Source: Clostridia bacterium (GTDB lineage: Bacteria > Bacillota_A > Clostridia > Oscillospirales > SIG627). Taken from it: a stretch of DNA of 8,291 nt. This document shows positions 382-8,291 of this stretch, in pieces (within the stretch, counting starts at the first letter, position 1; every line of letters begins with the position of its first letter). A program made the position numbers and the translations under genes. The stretch lies in NCBI GenBank assembly GCA_017508505.1, contig JAFVYT010000011.1:1-8291 (forward strand). Direction: 5' to 3'. The notes below the pieces were generated by a model. It was given only the letters and a program-made list of their open reading frames with translations. It ran no database searches and was not told the DNA's origin.

Positions 382-402
382 AAAGAAATGAGGTATAAAG
401 GT

Positions 403-1776
403 ATGGAACTGAAAGAAATGAAAAAGAAGGTTGGCGTAAAGGGCCCCGTTGTCCTTTTGGTTTTGGACGGTGTGGGACTCAATCCCAATCAGGTCGGCAA
501 CGCCGTGAAATGTGCGGACACTCCCACGCTGGACCGTTTGATGCGCGATTACCCCACCTTGAGCCTGAAGGCGCACGGCACCGCAGTCGGCCTGCCCTCT
601 GACGACGATATGGGCAACTCCGAGGTTGGCCACAACGCACTTGGCTCCGGACAGATCTTTGCTCAGGGAGCAAAGCTGGTTTCCAACTCCATTGAGAGCG
701 GCAAAATCTTTGCGGGAGAGGGCTGGCAGAAGGTCAGCAGCAACTGCAAGGCAAACGCTTCCACCCTGCACTTCCTCGGTCTCTTTTCCGACGGTAACGT
801 GCATTCCCACATCGATCATCTGAAGGCTCTTGTGGCTCAGGCAAAGAAGGATGGAATCGCCCGTGTGCGCGTGCACATTCTTTTGGACGGCAGAGACGTC
901 GCAGAGACCAGCGCGCTGGATTACGTAGAGCCCTTCGAGGCTTACCTTTCCGAGCTGCGTGACGAGAGCTTTGACGTTATGATCGCCTCCGGCGGCGGAA
1001 GAATGAGCATCACCATGGACCGCTATGAGGCAAACTGGCAGATGGTCAAGGCAGGTTGGGACATCCACGTGCTCGGCAAGGGCAGACAGTTTGCAAGCGC
1101 AAAGGATGCGATTGAGACCTACCGCGAGGAGCTGCACGTGATCGATCAGGATCTCCCCGGCTTTGTCATTGCCCGTGACGGCAAGCCCGTCGGCACCGTA
1201 GAGGACGGAGACGGTGTGATCTTCTTCAACTTCCGCGGCGACCGATCCATCGAGATCTCCAAGGCATTCTGCGATGAGGACTTTGATCACTTCGACAGAG
1301 TGCGCTTCCCCAAGACGGCTTATGCCGGTATGCTGGAATACGACGGAGATCTTCACATTCCTCCCGTATACCTTGTGGCACCTCCCGAAATCACCAACAC
1401 CATGGGTGAGTATCTGGCCGAGGCTCCCTTCCGTTCTTTGGCGGTCAGCGAGACGCAGAAGTACGGTCACGTGACCTACTTCTGGAACGGCAACAAGTCC
1501 GGCAAATACAGCGAAGAAAAGGAAACCTATATGGAGATTCCTTCCGACGTGGTTCCCTTTGAGCAGAGACCTTGGATGAAGTGTGCAGAGATCACCGACG
1601 TGCTTCTTTCTGCCATCCGCGGGGGCGAATACAAGTTCATCCGTGCCAACTTCCCCAACGGCGACATGGTCGGCCACACGGGTAATATGAAGGCAACCAA
1701 GATCAGCATGGAGGCTCTTGACCTTTGTTTGGATCGCATCCTTGCGGCCAAGATGAGGTTGGCGGCGTCGCGCTGA
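403..1776 (+). CDS. gpmI: 2,3-bisphosphoglycerate-independent phosphoglycerate mutase, 5' fragment (frameshifted)
   Basis: Cofactor-independent phosphoglycerate mutase interconverts 3- and 2-phosphoglycerate in glycolysis using two Mn ions. I prefer the ATG at 403 because GAGG at 390-393 sits 9 bases upstream; an ATG at 388 is in frame but has a poor ribosome site. Numbered from 388, the N-terminal metal aspartate is D27 (VLDGVG) and the phosphorylated serine is S78 in [13 protein letters not shown] and LLDGRD mark the substrate-binding domain. NGDMVGHTG near the end supplies the Asp and His of one Mn site. The pattern SGGGRM-TMDRYE-W-MV, together with FFWNGN-SG, is the plant/trypanosome-like form rather than the usual bacterial GRYYAMDRD. 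The frame breaks near 1752: after LDRILAAK it runs into a short wrong tail (MRLAASR) and stops, while the remainder continues in the -1 frame. The 3' part is listed separately. Confidence 0.93.
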
Positions 1777-2045
1777 TCACCGCTGACCACGGCAACGCAG
1801 ACGAAATGTACGAGATCGACAAGAAGAGCGGTGAGCCCAAGAAGAATAAGGACGGCTCCCTGAAGTCCAAGACCAGCCACACCCTCAATCCCGTTCCCTG
1901 CATCTTCTACGACAATGCTACCGCCGACCGTTATACCGTAAAGGATGGCTCCTTCGGTCTTTCCAACGTGGCGGCTACTACGGTAAACCTCCTGGGCTAC
2001 GAGGCTCCCGAGATCTGGAACGAGAGCATGATCGAGGTCAAGTAA
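1725..2045 (+). CDS. gpmI: Phosphoglycerate mutase GpmI, 3' fragment (same gene, -1 frame)
   Basis: This is the rest of gpmI. The ATG at 1725 is only the first in-frame methionine; true homology begins at the GAT at 1752-1754 ([19 protein letters not shown]). It carries the D-H pair of TADHGNAD and the His of TSHT, which are metal ligands in the family, then LSNVAAT and a C-terminal I-E-V typical of the long form. Restoring one base at the junction (AAG GAT instead of AAGAT) would give one protein of about 547 residues from the 403 start. Usual bacterial GpmI is about 510, and the plant-like type about 550-560. As it stands, neither fragment contains all the metal ligands, so neither could be active alone. 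The good conservation on both sides suggests a recent mutation or an assembly error rather than old decay. Confidence 0.9.
1750..1754 (+). other. gpmI: Frameshift site in gpmI (apparent loss of one G)
   Basis: Frame 1 reads ...LDRILAAK up to base 1752. The -1 frame resumes the conserved protein at GAT (1752-1754), giving [14 protein letters not shown]. Inserting one G after AAG joins the two without loss. No X-XXY-YYZ slippery heptamer is present (local sequence GGCCAAGATGAG), so programmed -1 frameshifting is unlikely. Confidence 0.88.
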
Positions 2046-2063
2046 GGATAAAAGAATGAAAGC

Positions 2064-2100
2064 AATAAGTCCCTCCGAAATCGGAGGGACTTATTTTATT
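2064..2100 (+). terminator. Rho-independent terminator after gpmI, probably bidirectional
   Basis: A near-perfect hairpin has AATAAGTCCCTCCGA (2064-2078) pairing with TCGGAGGGACTTATT (2081-2095). It is followed by a T-rich run (TTATTCTCTT) on the plus strand and begins 18 bases after the gpmI stop. On the minus strand the same hairpin directly follows the stop codon of the small gene at 2096-2176 and runs into a moderately T-rich stretch, so it may end both converging transcripts. Confidence 0.93.
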
Positions 2101-2176
2101 CTCTTGTGACCTGCAATATACACATACAAAATACACCGATGATTGCACCGATCAACACACCCAAGAGAAAATCCAT
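2096..2176 (-). CDS. 26-residue single-helix membrane micro-protein, DUF3789-like
   Basis: A short reading frame starts with ATG at 2176 and ends with TAA at 2098-2096. It encodes a 26-residue peptide that starts MDFLLGVLIG and ends CILQVTRE. Residues 3-22 form one hydrophobic helix with small residues (G6, G10, G14) on one face and two cysteines (C17, C19). A short polar, charged tail follows, so a single-pass inner-membrane peptide is likely. AAAGGTG at 2192-2186 lies 9 bases upstream of the ATG, a good Shine-Dalgarno site for something so short. The pattern LLG--IG---GV--MC-LQ resembles the DUF3789 family, uncharacterised proteins of about 30 residues found in Firmicutes and their mobile elements; this is from memory and unchecked. 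The start is 48 bases after the recombinase stop on the same strand, so the two may share a transcript. Function unknown. Confidence 0.72.
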   Translation of the reverse strand: MDFLLGVLIGAIIGVFCMCILQVTRE

Positions 2177-2185
2177 TTTTGACCA

Positions 2186-2192
2186 CACCTTT
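2186..2192 (-). promoter_or_regulatory. Shine-Dalgarno site of the micro-protein
   Basis: Read on the minus strand this is AAAGGTG, 9 bases upstream of the ATG at 2176. It is the main non-coding evidence that the 26-codon frame is translated. Confidence 0.65.
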
Positions 2193-2224
2193 GTTTTTTA
2201 CTAGTATGGTTAAAATACAAAAGC

Positions 2225-3184
2225 TTATTCAGAATCATTTAACGGATTTTCTGCCATAGCGCGCTTCATATGGTCACTGCTGACGTGGGTATAGATTTGT
2301 GTGGTGGTCAGTTGCTCGTGGCCGAGGATATCCTTCAGGACGCGGACATCCACCTTTCCCGTCTCGTAAAGCAGAGTTGCGGCAGTATGGCGCAGCTTGT
2401 GCACGGACAGATTACGCTCACCGAGGCCTGCAAGATCAAGATAGCGATAAACGAGCCATTGGATGGACTTGACGGAGAGCCTGAGACTGTTGCGGCTGAC
2501 AAACAAGGCATCCGGATCCTTGCAATGGAGCTTTTTTCGTTCCGAAAGATACTCGGATAAGGCAGCAATGCAGGAATCGTTGAGATAGATCACCCGCTGT
2601 TTATTGCCCTTTCCCGTGACCACGAGGCGCTCAAGATCCCCGGACAGGTCGGAAAGAGAGAGACTTGCCATCTCGGAAACACGCATTCCGCAATTTAAAA
2701 AGAGCGTAATAATAGCATAATCGCGTAAGTTATGGGATGAGCCGTGCTCCTTGACGGCCAGAAGAAGGGCTCGGCTTTCCTCCAGAGTCAAAAACTTAGG
2801 GAGGGCCGGCTTCAGCGAAGGGGACTCAATATCCTTTGCCGGGTTATCGGGGATGGAATGCTCCTTGGTCGCAAGAAACTTAAAAAAGCCACGTATGGCG
2901 CAGAGCTTGCGCGCGCGGCTGGCATTCCCATTTTTCTTATCCCGAGCAAGATAAAGGAGATATTCGTAAATATCCTGACGCTGAATCGAGGCAATGTCAG
3001 AATCCATCACGGTAGTGAGGTCCGCAGTCTCCTGATCCGCAAATCGGTCACGAAAGCAGAACCTCAAAAAGCCGGAAAGATCGATACCGTATTCATAGAC
3101 AGTTTTTTCGCTGCAGCCCTGAATGGTGAGCTTATACGACAAAAAGCGTGCAACAGAGGGGGGATATTGATTTTTAGGAAGCAT
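2225..3184 (-). CDS. Tyrosine recombinase, XerC/XerD-like
   Basis: This is a complete 319-residue site-specific tyrosine recombinase, which would cut and rejoin DNA through a covalent 3'-phosphotyrosine. Residues 8-108 form the SAM-like core-binding domain and about 128-312 the catalytic domain. The full catalytic set is visible: R168 (CGMRVSE), K192 (GKGNK), H262 and R265 (HKLRH), H289 (LGHE) and nucleophile Y298 (TQIYTH). Spacing closely matches E. coli XerD (R148, K172, H244, R247, H270, Y279). The protein is about 20 residues longer than standard Xer proteins, mainly through extra sequence at residues 45-68. ATG at 3184 is preceded by AAGGTAA. The gene lies just after the terminator of the upstream surface-protein gene. 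No attachment sites or other phage/ICE genes are visible, so a chromosomal Xer-type recombinase is more likely than an element integrase. XerC versus XerD cannot be decided here. Confidence 0.93.
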   Translation of the reverse strand: MLPKNQYPPSVARFLSYKLTIQGCSEKTVYEYGIDLSGFLRFCFRDRFADQETADLTTVMDSDIASIQRQDIYEYLLYLARDKKNGNASRARKLCAIRGFFKFLATKEHSIPDNPAKDIESPSLKPALPKFLTLEESRALLLAVKEHGSSHNLRDYAIITLFLNCGMRVSEMASLSLSDLSGDLERLVVTGKGNKQRVIYLNDSCIAALSEYLSERKKLHCKDPDALFVSRNSLRLSVKSIQWLVYRYLDLAGLGERNLSVHKLRHTAATLLYETGKVDVRVLKDILGHEQLTTTQIYTHVSSDHMKRAMAENPLNDSE

Positions 3185-3200
3185 ATCAAATTACCTTAAA

Positions 3201-3233
3201 AAACAAAAAAGCGGCTGACGAACAGCCGCTTTT
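3201..3233 (-). terminator. Rho-independent terminator after the first surface-protein gene
   Basis: On the minus strand the stem AAAAGCGGCTG (3233-3223) pairs with CAGCCGCTTTT (3217-3207) around a TTCGT loop. It is followed by TTTTTTGTTTTTT. It begins 5 bases after the stop of the gene at 3239-4792 and ends within 20 bases of the recombinase ATG. Confidence 0.93.
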
Positions 3234-3238
3234 AAAGC

Positions 3239-4792
3239 TTAATGAACTCTCTTTTTCTTCAGAACCACAAAGCTTGCGCCTGCGGCAACAGTAAGCATTG
3301 CAACACCGGAGATGATGCAGATCGTCAAAGCGTCACCGGTCTGAGCCGAACCGCCGACAGAGCCCATAACAGAGCCGTAAACGGTAAAGCCACGGGACAA
3401 ATTCTTCGATACAGAGGTATTGACCCACTTGGATCCGTCAAATCTCTGCTGCGTGAAGGTTACGATCAAAATGTTGTGGCCGATCGGAAGGTTTCCGGTA
3501 TTAAACTTACCGGTTGTGAAATCCTCGCTGAAGGTGCCGGTAAGCTTGGTGGTTGCGCCACTTCTGATGATAAACTTGGTAGGTACGTTGCGAATGTCAC
3601 CGACCAGAGGTCTGGTATTGTCAACACCGTCGGGAATAACGGTGAAGCTCACGTCCTTGCCGGTCTGATAGGTGGCTCCAAACTGATCAAAGCCGAATCC
3701 GGAGGGGCCGGGACGGAAGCCGGTGGATGCGGGAGCATTTGCGCCACCGACGGTGGTGTGGAATACGGGAGAAGGTACGTAAGCAACGGAAAGGGATTCG
3801 CCCTTGGCGTTGGTCCAATACTCAGCAACCGCATCGTCCCACGTGCTCTTCACTTCCGTATCGGGGGAGCTGCCGTATGCACAAATCTCGCGCCCGCCCG
3901 CAAAGCCGGTGGACAGATAAAAGTTCTGATCACCGCCCGCGCCGCCGGTTCTTGTCACGCCAACCTGGAAGAGGTAGGAGCCGTAGAACTCACCGGAGGC
4001 AAGAAGGTCATCCACAGCCTTTTCATCATAGCTGCCGACGGCAGAGAAGATGACGTCGTTGAGAGGAATGCGATACTCAAACTCGTAAACGTAGCTGCCG
4101 TTATCCTCGGTGTAGGAGATGGCAGTGTTCTTGGAGTACTTATAGAGGGTCCAATCGGAGTAGGGGTTTGCATAGTCCAGAATCGCAGTCTTGGTTACCT
4201 CACCGTCGATCTTCTTATAGTTACGAAGACCTGCCACACAACCGCCAACGGAGTAGCCGTCAAGACCCTTCTCGTATGCGTAGGTGTTGGAAAGACGGGA
4301 AGCGGCCTCGGAGATGGCAGTGGACTGGTTCAGACCGTAACGCACGTTGGTGTTGAGCGTGGATGTATTGCCAAGCTCGTCCACAACGGAGAACTCAACG
4401 GGAGACTCCACCTTCTCGGCGATGAAAACATACTCGTCGTTATAAGCGAGATAGGTGGTTACGACGACGTCCTCATAATCGGCACCGTAGGCATCGGTAT
4501 AGTCAACCTTGCAATTGTCATCGGTCAAGGTCAGACCGTCCCCGAGCTTTGCCACGTCAGAGGGTACTCCGCCGTACTGAGCGGGATCAATGCCCGCATC
4601 CGTCAGGCTGGGCTCAGCACTGACCTTATAGGCAAGGAAGGTGTGCAAGCCGTATGCGCGCAGATCGTGGGCCGTCGTGCCGTACTGGATGTACGTGGTA
4701 GAGGTCTGATCCGCATAGCTTGCAAAAACAGGCACGCAGAACGCACCTACAACGAAAGTGATCGCAACAAGGAAAGAAATTATTTTTTTCAT
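3239..4792 (-). CDS. Exported surface protein with CBM9/DOMON-like domain and TGD-type C-terminal anchor (paralogue A)
   Basis: This is a 517-residue secreted, anchored protein. ATG at 4792 is chosen because AAGGAGT (4807-4801) sits 9 bases upstream; an in-frame TTG at 4801 overlaps that site. Residues 1-24 are a clear signal peptide (MKKIISF, hydrophobic core, cut after VFA). LRAYGLHT lies at 44-51. A P-L-T-D-x-G-I-x-x-x-Q-Y segment (about 61-73) and TYLAYNDEYVFIAE (113-126) resemble the two signature strands of CBM9-like/DOMON beta-sandwich domains. YEFEYRIPLNDV (236-247) is shared with the gene at 6284. A second, beta-rich region covers about 380-475. SAQTGD (482-487), a 23-residue helix (489-511) and KKKRVH form a sortase-like tail, though without the usual LPxTG proline. 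It is preceded by a consensus promoter and closed by its own terminator. A carbohydrate or other small ligand is plausible but unproven; no catalytic residues were recognised. Confidence 0.88.
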   Translation of the reverse strand: MKKIISFLVAITFVVGAFCVPVFASYADQTSTTYIQYGTTAHDLRAYGLHTFLAYKVSAEPSLTDAGIDPAQYGGVPSDVAKLGDGLTLTDDNCKVDYTDAYGADYEDVVVTTYLAYNDEYVFIAEKVESPVEFSVVDELGNTSTLNTNVRYGLNQSTAISEAASRLSNTYAYEKGLDGYSVGGCVAGLRNYKKIDGEVTKTAILDYANPYSDWTLYKYSKNTAISYTEDNGSYVYEFEYRIPLNDVIFSAVGSYDEKAVDDLLASGEFYGSYLFQVGVTRTGGAGGDQNFYLSTGFAGGREICAYGSSPDTEVKSTWDDAVAEYWTNAKGESLSVAYVPSPVFHTTVGGANAPASTGFRPGPSGFGFDQFGATYQTGKDVSFTVIPDGVDNTRPLVGDIRNVPTKFIIRSGATTKLTGTFSEDFTTGKFNTGNLPIGHNILIVTFTQQRFDGSKWVNTSVSKNLSRGFTVYGSVMGSVGGSAQTGDALTICIISGVAMLTVAAGASFVVLKKKRVH

Positions 4793-4800
4793 TGCAAACA

Positions 4801-4807
4801 ACTCCTT
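4801..4807 (-). promoter_or_regulatory. Shine-Dalgarno site of surface paralogue A
   Basis: Minus-strand AAGGAGT lies 9 bases before ATG 4792. It decides against the upstream TTG at 4801, which is part of the site itself. Confidence 0.85.
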
Positions 4808-4816
4808 ATAGTTCTG

Positions 4817-4850
4817 TTGACATTATAGCATTTCATAGGCTCAATGTCAA
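4817..4850. repeat. Inverted repeat TTGACATT...AATGTCAA framing the promoter
   Basis: TTGACATT (4817-4824) and its perfect reverse complement AATGTCAA (4843-4850) are separated by 18 bases. One arm contains the -35 box of paralogue A's promoter; the other overlaps the -10 box and probable start of transcription. This is the geometry of an operator, but it could arise by chance because one arm is constrained by the -35 consensus. Confidence 0.5.
4822..4850 (-). promoter_or_regulatory. Consensus SigA promoter of surface paralogue A
   Basis: On the minus strand TTGACA (4850-4845), a 17-base spacer and TATAAT (4827-4822) match the housekeeping consensus exactly. TGC precedes the -10, giving an extended -10 (TGnTATAAT). 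Transcription would start near 4815, about 23 bases upstream of the ATG at 4792, with AAGGAGT in the short leader. Strong constitutive expression is expected unless repressed. Confidence 0.92.
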
Positions 4851-4882
4851 TAGAAAAAGCATCAGAATCCACAACATATCCC

Positions 4883-6232
4883 TTATTTTTTCATCGATTT
4901 TTGTTTTTTTGCATCATTTTTCCCGCAATCCGAGCCATTTCGGAAAACAGATGCAACAACGATCACGGAGACCAAGAGCAATACTCCCGCAAAGCAAAGC
5001 AGGATCGGCCCCAAGACGGCATTGCTCTTCCCTTCCTCCGACAAGGAGGAAAAGAAAACGATCTCGGTTGCATCGGATGCATCTTCAAAATCATCGGGCA
5101 GCCCTTCCCAAAAGACGTCAGCCGGCAAGTCCCCATCCACCACTTTGTCTGCCGAAACGGTGGATGCAGGGGGAACAACCGTCTCGGAGTCGTTCTCGCC
5201 CCATTGCTTCTTGTTCTCGGGCGTCTTTTCGGGCTCAGCCGCAAGAGGTTCCCGGGACGCATCTTCGTCAGGCGCAGGCAAAGCAGGCTCCGTCGGAGAA
5301 TCAAAGCTGCCTTGCAAAAGGTATATACAAGGTAACAGCGGTGGCAGATCGGAGTCCGAAAGGCCGCATCCCTCTAAAGCTCCTGAGAACGTGGTGTCTC
5401 CGACGGAAAGATGCGCAGCCCTTTCCTTGGGAATCCCGATGCAGAGCAAAGCGGAATCCATGGGATTCGGAAAGCGTATGGGGACAGAAACGGAAATATA
5501 TCCGTAGCGAAGCTCGGCATTTGAGGAGGCGGGATTCAAGTAGGCATCTCTCTCGGAATCAGGCAAGCTGTTTGCCAGCTCCTCAAAGGAGCAGTTGAAT
5601 ACAAAGACCATGCCGCCGTGCTTTTCGGAGCAAGAGGCCGACGAAGAAAGCATATCGGCATCCCAAAAAGTTCCAGAGGAATCTGCAAAAGCCTCTCCCC
5701 TGGAGGCAGTAAAGGAGGAAAGGATGGCTTGGTTTTCCACAACGCCGTCAACTCTTTTGTTGCGGATGCCGTAAACCCCTATGCAGGAGTGATCCTTCTC
5801 GGAAAAGAAAAAGGAGGTCGTACAGGGCGAATAGGAGGACAGAGCACCGTCGGACCCAAGGCCCAGTTTTAAGTCGAAGCGATATCCGCTTTCTTTGTCA
5901 AAGGCCTTCACCGGAACCAAAAGCTCCGAGAACGCACGAGGCAAGAAAAGTTCGATTCGGATCATAGCCGAGGTGGAAGAAACCGAAAGGTAGGGATCCC
6001 CCTCCAGCTGAGAAATCAGATCGGTGTCGTCCTCAGAAAAACGATCGTTTTCCGTCAGGACAAACAAATCCCGCCCCGGACAAAGAGTGTGTAAGGAGGC
6101 ATCCGCCGTAAGGGACGGAAGGCTCGATACGAGCGAAACAGCACGATCCTCCTCCAAGGCTGAAACAGAGCAAAGCACACTCCAAAGAGCGAGAAGTATA
6201 CTAGCAGTTTTCAATAAAATTCGACATTTCAT
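4883..6232 (-). CDS. Diverged surface protein paralogue with acidic stalk and charged cytoplasmic tail (paralogue B)
   Basis: This is a 449-residue predicted type I membrane protein that I do not recognise as a named family. Residues 1-25 are a signal peptide (MKCRILLKTAS, hydrophobic core, VSA cut). An ectodomain covers about 26-305. An acidic, proline-rich stalk lies at about 310-400, a 26-residue transmembrane helix at 405-430, and a 19-residue lysine-rich cytoplasmic tail ends the protein. GIRNKRVDGVVENQAIL (155-171) aligns with GLRNYKKIDGEVTKTAIL in paralogue A. The following hydrophobic strand near 207-222 aligns with A's YEFEYRIPLNDV region, so B is probably a highly diverged relative. 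It has no TGD element and no clear N-terminal CBM9 strand. Its ATG lies only two bases after the T-run of the preceding gene's terminator, and no Shine-Dalgarno site is visible. The frame is intact over 1.35 kb, so it is probably functional but weakly expressed. Confidence 0.8.
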   Translation of the reverse strand: MKCRILLKTASILLALWSVLCSVSALEEDRAVSLVSSLPSLTADASLHTLCPGRDLFVLTENDRFSEDDTDLISQLEGDPYLSVSSTSAMIRIELFLPRAFSELLVPVKAFDKESGYRFDLKLGLGSDGALSSYSPCTTSFFFSEKDHSCIGVYGIRNKRVDGVVENQAILSSFTASRGEAFADSSGTFWDADMLSSSASCSEKHGGMVFVFNCSFEELANSLPDSERDAYLNPASSNAELRYGYISVSVPIRFPNPMDSALLCIGIPKERAAHLSVGDTTFSGALEGCGLSDSDLPPLLPCIYLLQGSFDSPTEPALPAPDEDASREPLAAEPEKTPENKKQWGENDSETVVPPASTVSADKVVDGDLPADVFWEGLPDDFEDASDATEIVFFSSLSEEGKSNAVLGPILLCFAGVLLLVSVIVVASVFRNGSDCGKNDAKKQKSMKK

Positions 6233-6234
6233 AG

Positions 6235-6271
6235 AAAAAAAAGAAGCCGACGATCATAAGGACCGTCGGCT
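6235..6271 (-). terminator. Rho-independent terminator after surface paralogue C
   Basis: On the minus strand AGCCGACG (6271-6264) pairs with CGTCGGCT (6252-6245) around an 11-base loop. C and eight T residues follow (6243-6235). It starts 12 bases after the stop of the gene at 6284-7771 and ends two bases short of the start codon of the gene at 4883-6232. Confidence 0.92.
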
Positions 6272-6283
6272 CATAATTCAAAA

Positions 6284-7771
6284 TCAGTGAGTGTTTGATC
6301 CGCGCTTTTTCATCACGATCACAACTGCTGCAGCGGCACAGAGGATCATGGCGGCGGAAAGAGACAGAGTAACGGAGAGATTGTCACCGGTTGCAACGGC
6401 AGCCTTGGTGGCAGCGGCAACGCGATTGGTCATATTGGCATTGGCAACGGCTCCTGCGGCTGCATTGGTGTTGGTTCCTCGAACCGCACTGGTCAAGGGA
6501 CCGCGGGTACGGGTCACACGGGAGGAGGTTACCAAAGTATCCGTGGGAGCGGAATAGAATCCGTCGTAGTTGAAGTTGGGATCGTAAGCACCGAGGAAGT
6601 GAACGGGGTTCATCCAGAAGGTAGTGCCTACCGTCGCCTTGCCGTGAATGGCCTTGGTAGCAGCGGTAACGGTGTTGGAAAGCTGATATTTCACAACCTT
6701 TCCGTCCTTATCGATATAACGGATGGTGCCGTTTGCACCGGAGGTAGCGGCGCCGCCTGCGGGCATATAAGTTACGGCATAGATAACATCATCGGGATGG
6801 ATCGTAGCCTCAGCGCCGTTGGGCAGGGTGCTGGTCTTACCGACGCTTGCCTGAAGGCGAATCTCGACGCCCCACTTGCCCCACTCGGGAACATAGTCAA
6901 TGGGGGTACCGTCGTCATACTCCACATCGGTGAGTCGGAGAACGTCGCCGAGAGGCATTCTGCCCTCGAAAACAACGCCCCATCTGCCGTCGTTCTGAAT
7001 GTCAACGCGGTAGGTGAAGTTCTCGGGTCTTCTGTAGATGGTAGAGCCCCAAGAAAGGCCATTCTCGTCTACGTAGGTGCCGACGTCGATGGTGTTGAAG
7101 GCATTGTTCTGATAGAGGGTGTAGATTCTCTTGTTGATGGAAACGGAAGCAGCGGTCTGAGGCTCGCTGAAATCGGTTCCTACGGGATACTTATAAAGAT
7201 TGTACATATTACGTCCGAAGGAGCTGGAGTTGCCGCCCTGAGATAAAGCGAGGTTTTCGGACTGCATAAAGTTAAAGCGGGTACCGAAAAGCCAGGTTGC
7301 CGAACGGGATACGCCGCCGGCGGAGTCAGTGCCGGAGGTGTTGCGGATGGCGGGCATCAGGGTGGAGACGGCAAAATAAACAAACTCGTCGTCGTAGGTC
7401 ATATAAGTATGAATATACTCGGGAATGTCGACGGGGTCGATGTAATCCGTCCAGTCACACTCGGGATAGAGGCTTCCCTGAGAGCCGTCTTCCTTGGGAT
7501 AGTATGCGTTCATCCACATGTTGTCGCCGAGAACAGACTCCAGCGCAAGGCCGTTGTTGGGACCGGGATACTCGGCCGTAGAGACGATACCGTCAATGGT
7601 GGGTGCCGTCTCGGTGGAATACACGTTCATCGTGTGGAGGCCGTATGCTTCCAGATTGTGGGAGGATACGGTTTCCGGAATGGTCAACGTGTAGCCTGCC
7701 GCAGAGGAAGACACCGTGACAAGGGACACCAGCATCGTGACTGCCAAAAGCATCGTAACTAATCTCTTCAT
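6284..7771 (-). CDS. Exported surface protein with CBM9/DOMON-like domain and TGD-type C-terminal anchor (paralogue C)
   Basis: This is a 495-residue secreted, anchored protein. ATG at 7771 is chosen because AAAGGAG (7784-7778) lies 6 bases upstream and the signal peptide MKRLVTMLLAVTML begins there; an in-frame ATG at 7807 would add 12 residues before the signal. The signal ends near SSSAA (21-25). NLEAYGLHT lies at 39-47. APTIDGIVSTAEY (56-68) and TYMTYDDEFVYFAV (122-135) are good matches to the P-x-I-D-G-x-x-x-x-x-E-Y and Y-D-D-E-x-x-Y signatures of CBM9-like/DOMON sandwiches. WGVVFEGRMPLGDV (264-277) corresponds to a segment in paralogue A. An Ala/Asn-rich spacer (about 433-459) precedes ATGD (460-463), a helix (465-487) and KKRGSNTH. 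Promoter and terminator are both strong, suggesting high single-gene expression. Ligand unknown; anchoring could be by a sortase or simply by the helix. Confidence 0.88.
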   Translation of the reverse strand: MKRLVTMLLAVTMLVSLVTVSSSAAGYTLTIPETVSSHNLEAYGLHTMNVYSTETAPTIDGIVSTAEYPGPNNGLALESVLGDNMWMNAYYPKEDGSQGSLYPECDWTDYIDPVDIPEYIHTYMTYDDEFVYFAVSTLMPAIRNTSGTDSAGGVSRSATWLFGTRFNFMQSENLALSQGGNSSSFGRNMYNLYKYPVGTDFSEPQTAASVSINKRIYTLYQNNAFNTIDVGTYVDENGLSWGSTIYRRPENFTYRVDIQNDGRWGVVFEGRMPLGDVLRLTDVEYDDGTPIDYVPEWGKWGVEIRLQASVGKTSTLPNGAEATIHPDDVIYAVTYMPAGGAATSGANGTIRYIDKDGKVVKYQLSNTVTAATKAIHGKATVGTTFWMNPVHFLGAYDPNFNYDGFYSAPTDTLVTSSRVTRTRGPLTSAVRGTNTNAAAGAVANANMTNRVAAATKAAVATGDNLSVTLSLSAAMILCAAAAVVIVMKKRGSNTH

Positions 7772-7777
7772 CTTGTG

Positions 7778-7784
7778 CTCCTTT
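7778..7784 (-). promoter_or_regulatory. Shine-Dalgarno site of surface paralogue C
   Basis: Minus-strand AAAGGAG lies 6 bases before ATG 7771. It fixes the start there rather than at the in-frame ATG 36 bases upstream. Confidence 0.85.
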
Positions 7785-7830
7785 GAAGGTTTTGTTCGAA
7801 TGAGCATAATATTACTCAGTATCTAGCATT

Positions 7831-7859
7831 ATGATAGCATCAAACCCTTTCTTTGTCAA
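7831..7859 (-). promoter_or_regulatory. SigA promoter of surface paralogue C
   Basis: On the minus strand TTGACA (7859-7854), a 17-base spacer and TATCAT (7836-7831) form a near-consensus promoter with an extended -10 (TGC just before it), as in paralogue A. An A/T-rich stretch lies upstream of the -35. The leader would be about 50 bases. Confidence 0.9.
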
Positions 7860-7864
7860 CAGGA

Positions 7865-7886
7865 TTTTTTGCGCAAATGCAAAAAA
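7865..7886. repeat. Short inverted repeat between divergent promoters
   Basis: TTTTTTGC (7865-7872) and GCAAAAAA (7879-7886) flank a 6-base centre, just upstream of paralogue C's -35 box. It could be a regulator site or an UP-like A/T element. It is mostly A/T, so its significance is low. Confidence 0.3.
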
Positions 7887-7923
7887 AGCATCGTTTTTCG
7901 GGATATATTTCACAAATTGTTTA

Positions 7924-7952
7924 TTGAAATTCCCTTTCGGATGCGCTAAACT
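7924..7952 (+). promoter_or_regulatory. Possible promoter of the rightmost membrane-protein gene
   Basis: TTGAAA (7924-7929), a 17-base spacer and TAAACT (7947-7952) form a plausible but imperfect SigA promoter upstream of the ATG at 7984. TATACA at 7952-7957 is an alternative -10 without a well-spaced -35. Confidence 0.4.
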
Positions 7953-7983
7953 ATACATAGATTATTTTTTGTGAGGATTCGAT

Positions 7984-8291
7984 ATGCACCAGATCAAACG
8001 AAACGCCGCACTGACCTTTAAAACCTTCCTGTATCAGGTTGTTATGAGTCTGTTTGGATTTATGATGTACAGCTCCACCTACCGCATTCCCTTTCTCCTT
8101 TGGATCGGGCAGGCGATCATCTCCGTTTTCTTCCTCTTTATAATGGCGTATCAGATGTTTCAGGCGGGAGCCAAGGCTTGTGAATACGATCGGGCCCACA
8201 GCCTCTCCTCTTCTCCGCTTCTCGGCTTCGGCTTTGCTTTGATCGGCTTCATCCCTGCGTTGGTGCTTTCCGCCATCGGCATCGCACAGCC
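7984..8291 (+). CDS. Multi-pass membrane protein of unknown function, N-terminal part
   Basis: ATG at 7984 is preceded by GAGG (7973-7976) at a 7-base spacing, and the frame stays open to the window edge, giving 102 residues. The start MHQIKRNAALTFKTF is basic and amphipathic. Hydrophobic helices lie at about 15-30, 36-58 and 79-101. A polar loop (60-77) containing ACEYDRAH separates helices two and three. I do not recognise the family. The gene is divergent from paralogue C with its own probable promoter, so it need not be functionally linked. Because the 3' end is missing, length and later domains are unknown. Confidence 0.8.
   Translation, partial: MHQIKRNAALTFKTFLYQVVMSLFGFMMYSSTYRIPFLLWIGQAIISVFFLFIMAYQMFQAGAKACEYDRAHSLSSSPLLGFGFALIGFIPALVLSAIGIAQ

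What the first reader, a model, noticed from the sequence alone, without database searches (positions are those of the whole stretch)
3239..7771. Tandem cluster of three diverging CBM9/DOMON-like surface proteins
Three consecutive minus-strand genes encode signal-peptide proteins with a C-terminal membrane helix. A and C share AYGLHT, a P-x-(I/L)-(T-)D-G-like segment, a Y-(D/N)-D-E-(F/Y)-V-(Y/F) strand and a (R)-(I/M)-P-L-(N/G)-D-V strand. B aligns weakly to A at GIRNKRVDG versus GLRNYKKIDG. This looks like duplication followed by specialisation of a surface binding module, with no enzyme, transporter or sortase gene beside it. I know of no described system with this layout. Function in ligand binding is inferred only from the CBM9-like strands.
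Basis: partly seen in the sequence, partly recalled or inferred. Interest (0 to 1): 0.72.

Follow-up and report, generated by a model that had tools for sequence, protein, structure and literature searches.

The report
Three-gene CBM9-fold surface protein cassette
A group of Clostridia carries three neighbouring genes, descended from one ancestor, for surface proteins with a sugar-binding-type fold; two look strongly expressed and wall-anchored, while the middle one looks weakly expressed and membrane-held, and what they bind is unknown.

The parts
6284..7771 (-). Gene C: secreted-type CBM9-fold paralogue, 495 aa, C-terminal ATGD sorting signal
   Evidence: ORF; homologous to A, hhalign E 6e-34; 36 other database relatives
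4883..6232 (-). Gene B: fast-diverging paralogue, 449 aa; signal peptide, sandwich module, acidic linker, membrane helix, basic tail; no sorting signal
   Evidence: ORF; hhalign to A and C; charges
3239..4792 (-). Gene A: secreted-type CBM9-fold paralogue with an extra Ig-like domain, 517 aa, AQTGD sorting signal
3746..4645 (-). CBM9-like sandwich of A (residues 50-349)
   Evidence: range aligned to 1i82 and 7nwn
3359..3703 (-). Ig-like domain of A (about residues 364-478), shared with long TGD surface proteins of Blautia and other genomes
3242..3340 (-). Sorting signal of A: TGD, hydrophobic helix, KKK tail (residues 485-517)
   Evidence: TGD in 28 of 28 A-family rows checked, window included; Gram_pos_anchor matched by 18 of 28 at E up to 1, not by the window's A
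6287..6391 (-). Sorting signal of C: TGD, hydrophobic helix, KKR tail (residues 461-495)
   Evidence: TGD in 32 of 32 C-family rows checked, window included; Gram_pos_anchor not listed for any of them
5309..6091 (-). Sandwich module of B (about residues 48-308)
   Evidence: model, fold look, hhalign to A
4886..5305 (-). B: acidic Pro/Ser/Thr/Asp/Glu-rich linker (net -19 per 100 aa), membrane helix (residues 410-428), basic tail (+5)
   Evidence: same pattern in 6 of 6 B
7831..7859 (-). Promoter-like site of C: TTGACA-17-TATCAT with TG extension, 11/12
   Evidence: conserved in 6 of 6 loci
4822..4850 (-). Promoter-like site of A: TTGACA-17-TATAAT with TG extension, 12/12
   Evidence: conserved in 5 of 5 loci
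6244..6272 (-). Terminator-like hairpin between C and B (12 pairs, T-run)
3207..3233 (-). Terminator-like hairpin after A (11 pairs, T-run)
   Evidence: one follows A in 5 of 5 loci

Best explanation
The locus is a conserved cassette of three ancient paralogues that build a lineage-specific cell-surface layer or adhesin. SHOWN by sequence and model: all three are secreted-type proteins of one family; A's module has a CBM9 fold, and B and C share that family by profile; A and C end in a TGD signal with helix and basic tail; B instead has an acidic linker, a membrane helix and a basic tail; near-perfect promoter-like sites precede C and A, and none of that quality precedes B. INFERRED: A and C are made in larger amounts and are joined to the cell wall by the class B-like sortase encoded elsewhere. 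B is made sparingly, by read-through past the hairpin behind C, and stays in the membrane with its module held out on the linker, as a base, assembly partner or sensor for the layer that A and C form. The sandwich faces bind a glycan, either the cell's own envelope polymer (a structural coat, slightly preferred) or an outside polysaccharide (an adhesin). My probabilities: wall-anchored CBM9-fold surface proteins 0.85; much more A and C than B 0.75; any glycan binding 0.45.
Against: No ligand, protein or transcript has been measured. No member passes Pfam CBM9_1, and CBM9's aromatic clamp could not be mapped. The signal is TGD, not LPxTG (0 of 60 rows); Gram_pos_anchor matches 18 of 28 A rows but is not listed for the window's A or for any of the 32 C rows. 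Recognition by the sortase is not shown; the three sortases scored fall just under the class B cut-off, and 14 of the 17 family genomes without the cluster also have a sortase. The cluster is in only 5 of 22 family genomes. Codon adaptation of A and C only equals that of iPGM, is below parC in G009 (0.44-0.45 against 0.47) and far below EF-Tu (0.73-0.78, partly by construction), so 'major protein' may overstate it. By a laxer rule (9/12) the window's B has one site, which overlaps the hairpin. The number of terminator-like sites in the window is near chance (10 found, 6.8 expected, sd 2.9), and the hairpin before B met my rule in 4 of 6 loci; in the other two I see one by eye with a short T-run.
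Confidence: 0.5

Rival explanations
1. Nutritional glycan capture: A and C hold plant, mucin or bacterial polysaccharide at the surface so that enzymes encoded elsewhere can feed on it, like CBM-bearing adhesins of fibre degraders.
Against: In the window no carbohydrate-degrading enzyme, transporter or regulator gene is recognised. In relatives the stretch beyond Xer varies: G001 has an aminotransferase-like and an AraC-like regulator gene, G006 a ribulokinase-like and BlaI/BlaR-like genes (names recalled), so a sugar link is not excluded. The promoter-like sites look constitutive and strong.
Confidence: 0.3
2. DOMON-type cofactor module: the sandwich holds haem or takes part in redox chemistry, as in the gamma subunits of ethylbenzene dehydrogenase and nitrite oxidoreductase.
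Confidence: 0.05
3. B is a decaying leftover: a silent paralogue without promoter that drifts freely.
For: A promoter-like site of at least 11/12 in 0 of 6 loci, a hairpin upstream, low codon adaptation, 27% mean identity; longest branch in the tree and odd composition for the window's B.
Against: Open frame, signal-like stretch, acidic linker, membrane helix and basic tail are present in 6 of 6; kept in G006 without A, and in G010 although an insertion separates it from A.
Confidence: 0.15
4. Phase-variable surface cassette switched by the adjacent Xer-type recombinase.
For: A tyrosine recombinase lies directly downstream in the window, G001, G006 and G010.
Against: In G001, G006 and G010 it is the best XerD match of its genome; in G008 and G009 the single match lies on another contig. 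No close inverted repeat flanks either promoter in the window (only distant, imperfect pairs and one hairpin at 2064-2095).
Confidence: 0.03

Closest known systems
Carbohydrate-binding module family 9 (T. maritima Xyn10A CBM9-2, 1i82; C. kristjanssonii CBM9.3, 7nwn/7nwo)
   Different: 10-11% identity; below Pfam CBM9_1 cut-off; free-standing proteins with sorting signals rather than modules of a xylanase; clamp residues and ligand unknown
BACUNI_03838, putative carbohydrate-binding protein of Bacteroides uniformis (4jpq)
   Different: Only 'putative' in the entry title; its gene context and anchoring were not examined here
DOMON-type gamma subunits (2ivf_C, 7b04_C)
   Different: Subunits of redox enzymes; no partner enzyme recognised in the window
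Sortase-anchored surface proteins of Bacillota
   Same: Signal-like stretch, C-terminal TG motif, helix, basic tail; 18 of 28 A-family rows match Gram_pos_anchor at E up to 1
   Different: TGD in place of LPxTG; no Gram_pos_anchor match listed for C; sortase not adjacent but elsewhere in the genomes

Membership tests
CBM9 | CBM9 beta-sandwich fold | tested here: met
CBM9 | Passes the Pfam CBM9_1 model (PF06452) | tested here: not met
   Not listed for A, B, C or the 60 A- and C-family rows at E up to 1; 0 of 5 cluster genomes over cut-off while T. maritima rings. CBM64 is listed weakly for 5 of 32 C rows (best E 0.019).
CBM9 | Aromatic clamp (Tyr89/Trp191 in CBM9.3) and calcium sites | not testable with these tools
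   No residue-level structural alignment available; invariant W318 and near-invariant W326 of A are only a lead.
CBM9 | Binds oligosaccharides | not testable with these tools
   Needs a bench assay.
DOMON (haem-binding) | Haem-ligating residues | not tested
   Fold likeness only.
Sortase substrates | Signal peptide, C-terminal TG-type motif, hydrophobic helix, basic tail (A and C) | tested here: met
   TGD in 28 of 28 and 32 of 32 rows; helix and +3 to +5 tail in the 11 A and C proteins of the six loci.
Sortase substrates | Canonical LPxTG | tested here: not met
   0 of 60 A- and C-family rows.
Sortase substrates | Match to Pfam Gram_pos_anchor | tested here: inconclusive
   18 of 28 A rows at E up to 1, best 1.6e-5, not the window's A; not listed for the 32 C rows.
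Sortase substrates | A sortase in the same genome | tested here: met
   5 of 5 cluster genomes, but also 14 of the 17 family genomes without the cluster. The window's own genome is not held.
Sortase substrates | Sorting motif in B | tested here: not met
   TGD in 0 of 6 B proteins.
Recombinase-switched (phase-variable) surface genes | Inverted repeats around the promoter | tested here: inconclusive
   No close pair found in window 2000-8291; no population reads available.

The most novel reading that the evidence does not exclude
An undescribed type of Gram-positive surface layer or adhesive organelle made of three CBM9-fold paralogues: two abundant, sortase-anchored major subunits (A with an Ig stalk, C without) and one scarce membrane-held minor subunit (B) that seeds or senses the layer, its stoichiometry set by a conserved promoter-C-hairpin-B-promoter-A-terminator layout.
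Probability: 0.25. Interest if true: 0.65.

Novelty: new variant of a known kind. Interest (0 to 1): 0.45.

Why it matters
It gives a family of Clostridia, whose named members here are metagenome-assembled genomes, a likely prominent surface protein set with a fold best known to me from modules of plant-fibre enzymes. The layout, with two strong-looking transcription units flanking a fast-evolving, weakly expressed membrane paralogue, is a clear and testable prediction about subunit ratios. If confirmed, it would show CBM9-fold modules serving as wall-anchored coat or adhesin subunits.

Tried and rejected
Pfam and NCBIfam on the single proteins: no family for A, B or C beyond weak matches (A matches GVDTG_CTERM at 16.1 bits, cut-off 29). 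PDB sequence searches with A, C and their profiles: no CBM9 match. Protein search with B: only B itself; its relatives came from genome neighbourhoods. Rfam at gathering threshold: nothing. Plasmids: no match to A. Phase variation by Xer: judged unlikely. The B-A relation was weak by single sequences and became clear only with profiles. Papers: five searches listed 4, 2, 1, 0 and 4 papers. Of PMC8280721 I read passages (12 of 30 places); the others were seen in the listing only. No listed title or abstract opening describes this cassette; that is all I can say about print.

Rows dropped or adjusted: A1 holds 28 of the 34 rows (window's A included). A2 holds the window's C and 31 of the 37 rows (one of the 37, P0038, is a fragment of C itself). 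In one search I cut signal peptides and unshared C-terminal parts before alignment. The codon comparison leaves out G008. One search used the wrong strand of EF-Tu and is replaced. In some searches the ORF picker chose antisense frames in part of the GC-rich loci, so A of G009 was placed, and the G008 and G009 sortases were not read. In some searches only 3 or 4 candidates per genome were scored, on samples of larger groups.

Full report
WHAT IS THERE. On the minus strand the window carries C (6284-7771), B (4883-6232), A (3239-4792) and a Xer-type recombinase (2225-3184). On the plus strand lie the end of a methionine gamma-lyase family gene, an iPGM gene, and the start of a small membrane protein that diverges from C. 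No Pfam family is listed for A, B or C at E up to 1. No genome is held for the window itself.

PARALOGY. A and C match by BLASTP (E 2e-13). A-B is marginal (E 0.010) and B-C absent. Database searches gave 33 other A relatives, 36 other C relatives plus one fragment of C itself, and only B itself for B. Thirteen of the longest-contig lengths listed for A relatives recur among C relatives, which suggests shared contigs (my count). Relatives of B came from genome neighbourhoods. With them, hhalign gives A-C 99.9% (E 6e-34), B-A 99.7% (E 2.7e-26) and B-C 99.0% (E 3.9e-18); with the window's own B added, 99.6% and 98.8%. A tree of 17 module sequences from six loci puts C (100/100), B (99/98) and A (91/97) each on one side of a branch, so the duplications look older than the sampled species; A's support is not starred, the window's B is a long branch, and the tree is unrooted.

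WHERE IT OCCURS. A scan of the 84,980-species collection by A patterns returned five loci; one encodes a full-length relative (L001, goat cecum Clostridia MAG), four only A's last domain. Of the 22 genomes in the family of that MAG, 7 have a match to the A profile; 5 of these carry the cluster and 2 are weak (E 4e-4 and 1e-3); the B profile finds the same 5. Among 394 genomes sampled from the order (C profile; 15 with any match) strong matches came only from those 5, and among 391 of the class (A profile; 14 with any match) only from G001; the others were short N-terminal stretches (up to 68 residues) or A's C-terminal domain (3 or 4 candidates scored per genome). C-B-A is contiguous in the window, G001 and G009; in G010 about 7 kb of other genes lie between B and A; G006 has C and B but no A; in G008 B and A are together and C lies on another contig. 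The small membrane protein and a cwlD-like amidase lie upstream in G001, G006 and G010, with the start of the former in the window; hflX-like genes are seen in these three and in G008 and G009, parC-like genes in G001, G006, G009 and G010 (names recalled). Xer follows in the window, G001, G006 and G010; in G008 another gene follows, upp-like by recall, and the first codons after A in G009 look alike.

ANCHORING. The A-family rows end in xQTGD or, once, PTGD (28 of 28 with TGD) and the C-family rows mostly in xATGD (32 of 32 with TGD), none with LPxTG (the window's own A and C are among the rows). Gram_pos_anchor matches 18 of 28 A rows at E up to 1 (best 1.6e-5), not the window's A, and is not listed for the 32 C rows. 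B has no TGD in 6 of 6; instead the 100 residues before its helix carry net -12 to -20, and a 20-44-residue tail +5 to +11. No sortase is adjacent, but PF04203 matches over cut-off in 5 of 5 cluster genomes and in 14 of the 17 others of the family, so it is not specific. The long sortase of G001, G006 and G010 has a TLSTC motif and the same neighbours and scores 150-153 bits on the class B model TIGR03064, cut-off 153.75.

REGULATORY LAYOUT. In the window the two best promoter-like sites of 2000-8291 are those of A (12/12) and C (11/12), both with TG before the -10; 10 sites of 9/12 or better were found against 4.6 expected (sd 2.6). In relatives the same holds: C 11/12 in 6 of 6 loci, A 12/12 in 5 of 5, all with TG and a 17-base spacer; B 0 of 6 at this level, though the window's B has one 9/12 site overlapping the hairpin. 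Control: over 188,860 strand-bases of these loci only 20 sites reach 11/12; 11 of them are these. A hairpin lies before B: by rule in 4 of 6 loci, by eye in G008 and G009; one follows A in 5 of 5. Terminator-like sites as such are not enriched in the window (10 found, 6.8 expected, sd 2.9). A and C have GGAG ribosome sites; I see none before B in 4 of 6 loci (by eye). Codon adaptation to EF-Tu is 0.43-0.55 for A and C, 0.30-0.33 for B, 0.43-0.55 for iPGM and 0.73-0.78 for EF-Tu itself; in G009 parC (0.47) exceeds A and C (0.44, 0.45).

DIVERGENCE. Mean identity between loci is 27% for B, 41% for A, 48% for C, 67% for Xer and 83% for iPGM, on unequal numbers of pairs. B is open in all six loci, so decay is possible but not favoured.

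VERDICT. The function is an inference. The closest known kinds, CBM9 modules and sortase-anchored surface proteins, are each met in part. I found no description of this cassette in five paper searches, which cover open-licence papers only.

Noticed in passing
window 388-2045 (+): The iPGM reading frame ends early at about 1776, and its continuation lies in another frame (ORF 1725-2045), unlike the 548-552-aa relatives; probably an assembly error or a frameshift.
   Followed up: partly
window 2096-2176 (-): A very short single-helix ORF (26 aa) follows the Xer gene (read by eye); it recalls DUF3789-like peptides (from memory, no search made).
   Followed up: no
L004 7529-10441, L005 7712-10438; also L002, L003: Long TGD surface proteins of Blautia and other genomes end in the same Ig-like domain as A; in L004 and L005 they sit just upstream of an htpG-like gene (name recalled).
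   Followed up: partly
L052 7774-15166: In G010 about 7 kb of genes, among them a chain-length-determinant-like and a large secreted protein (likeness recalled), lies between B and A.
   Followed up: no
L054 3324-4043; L051 near 11790: The closest pair, G008 and G009, has another gene (upp-like, name recalled) after A where the others have Xer; their single Xer match lies on another contig.
   Followed up: partly
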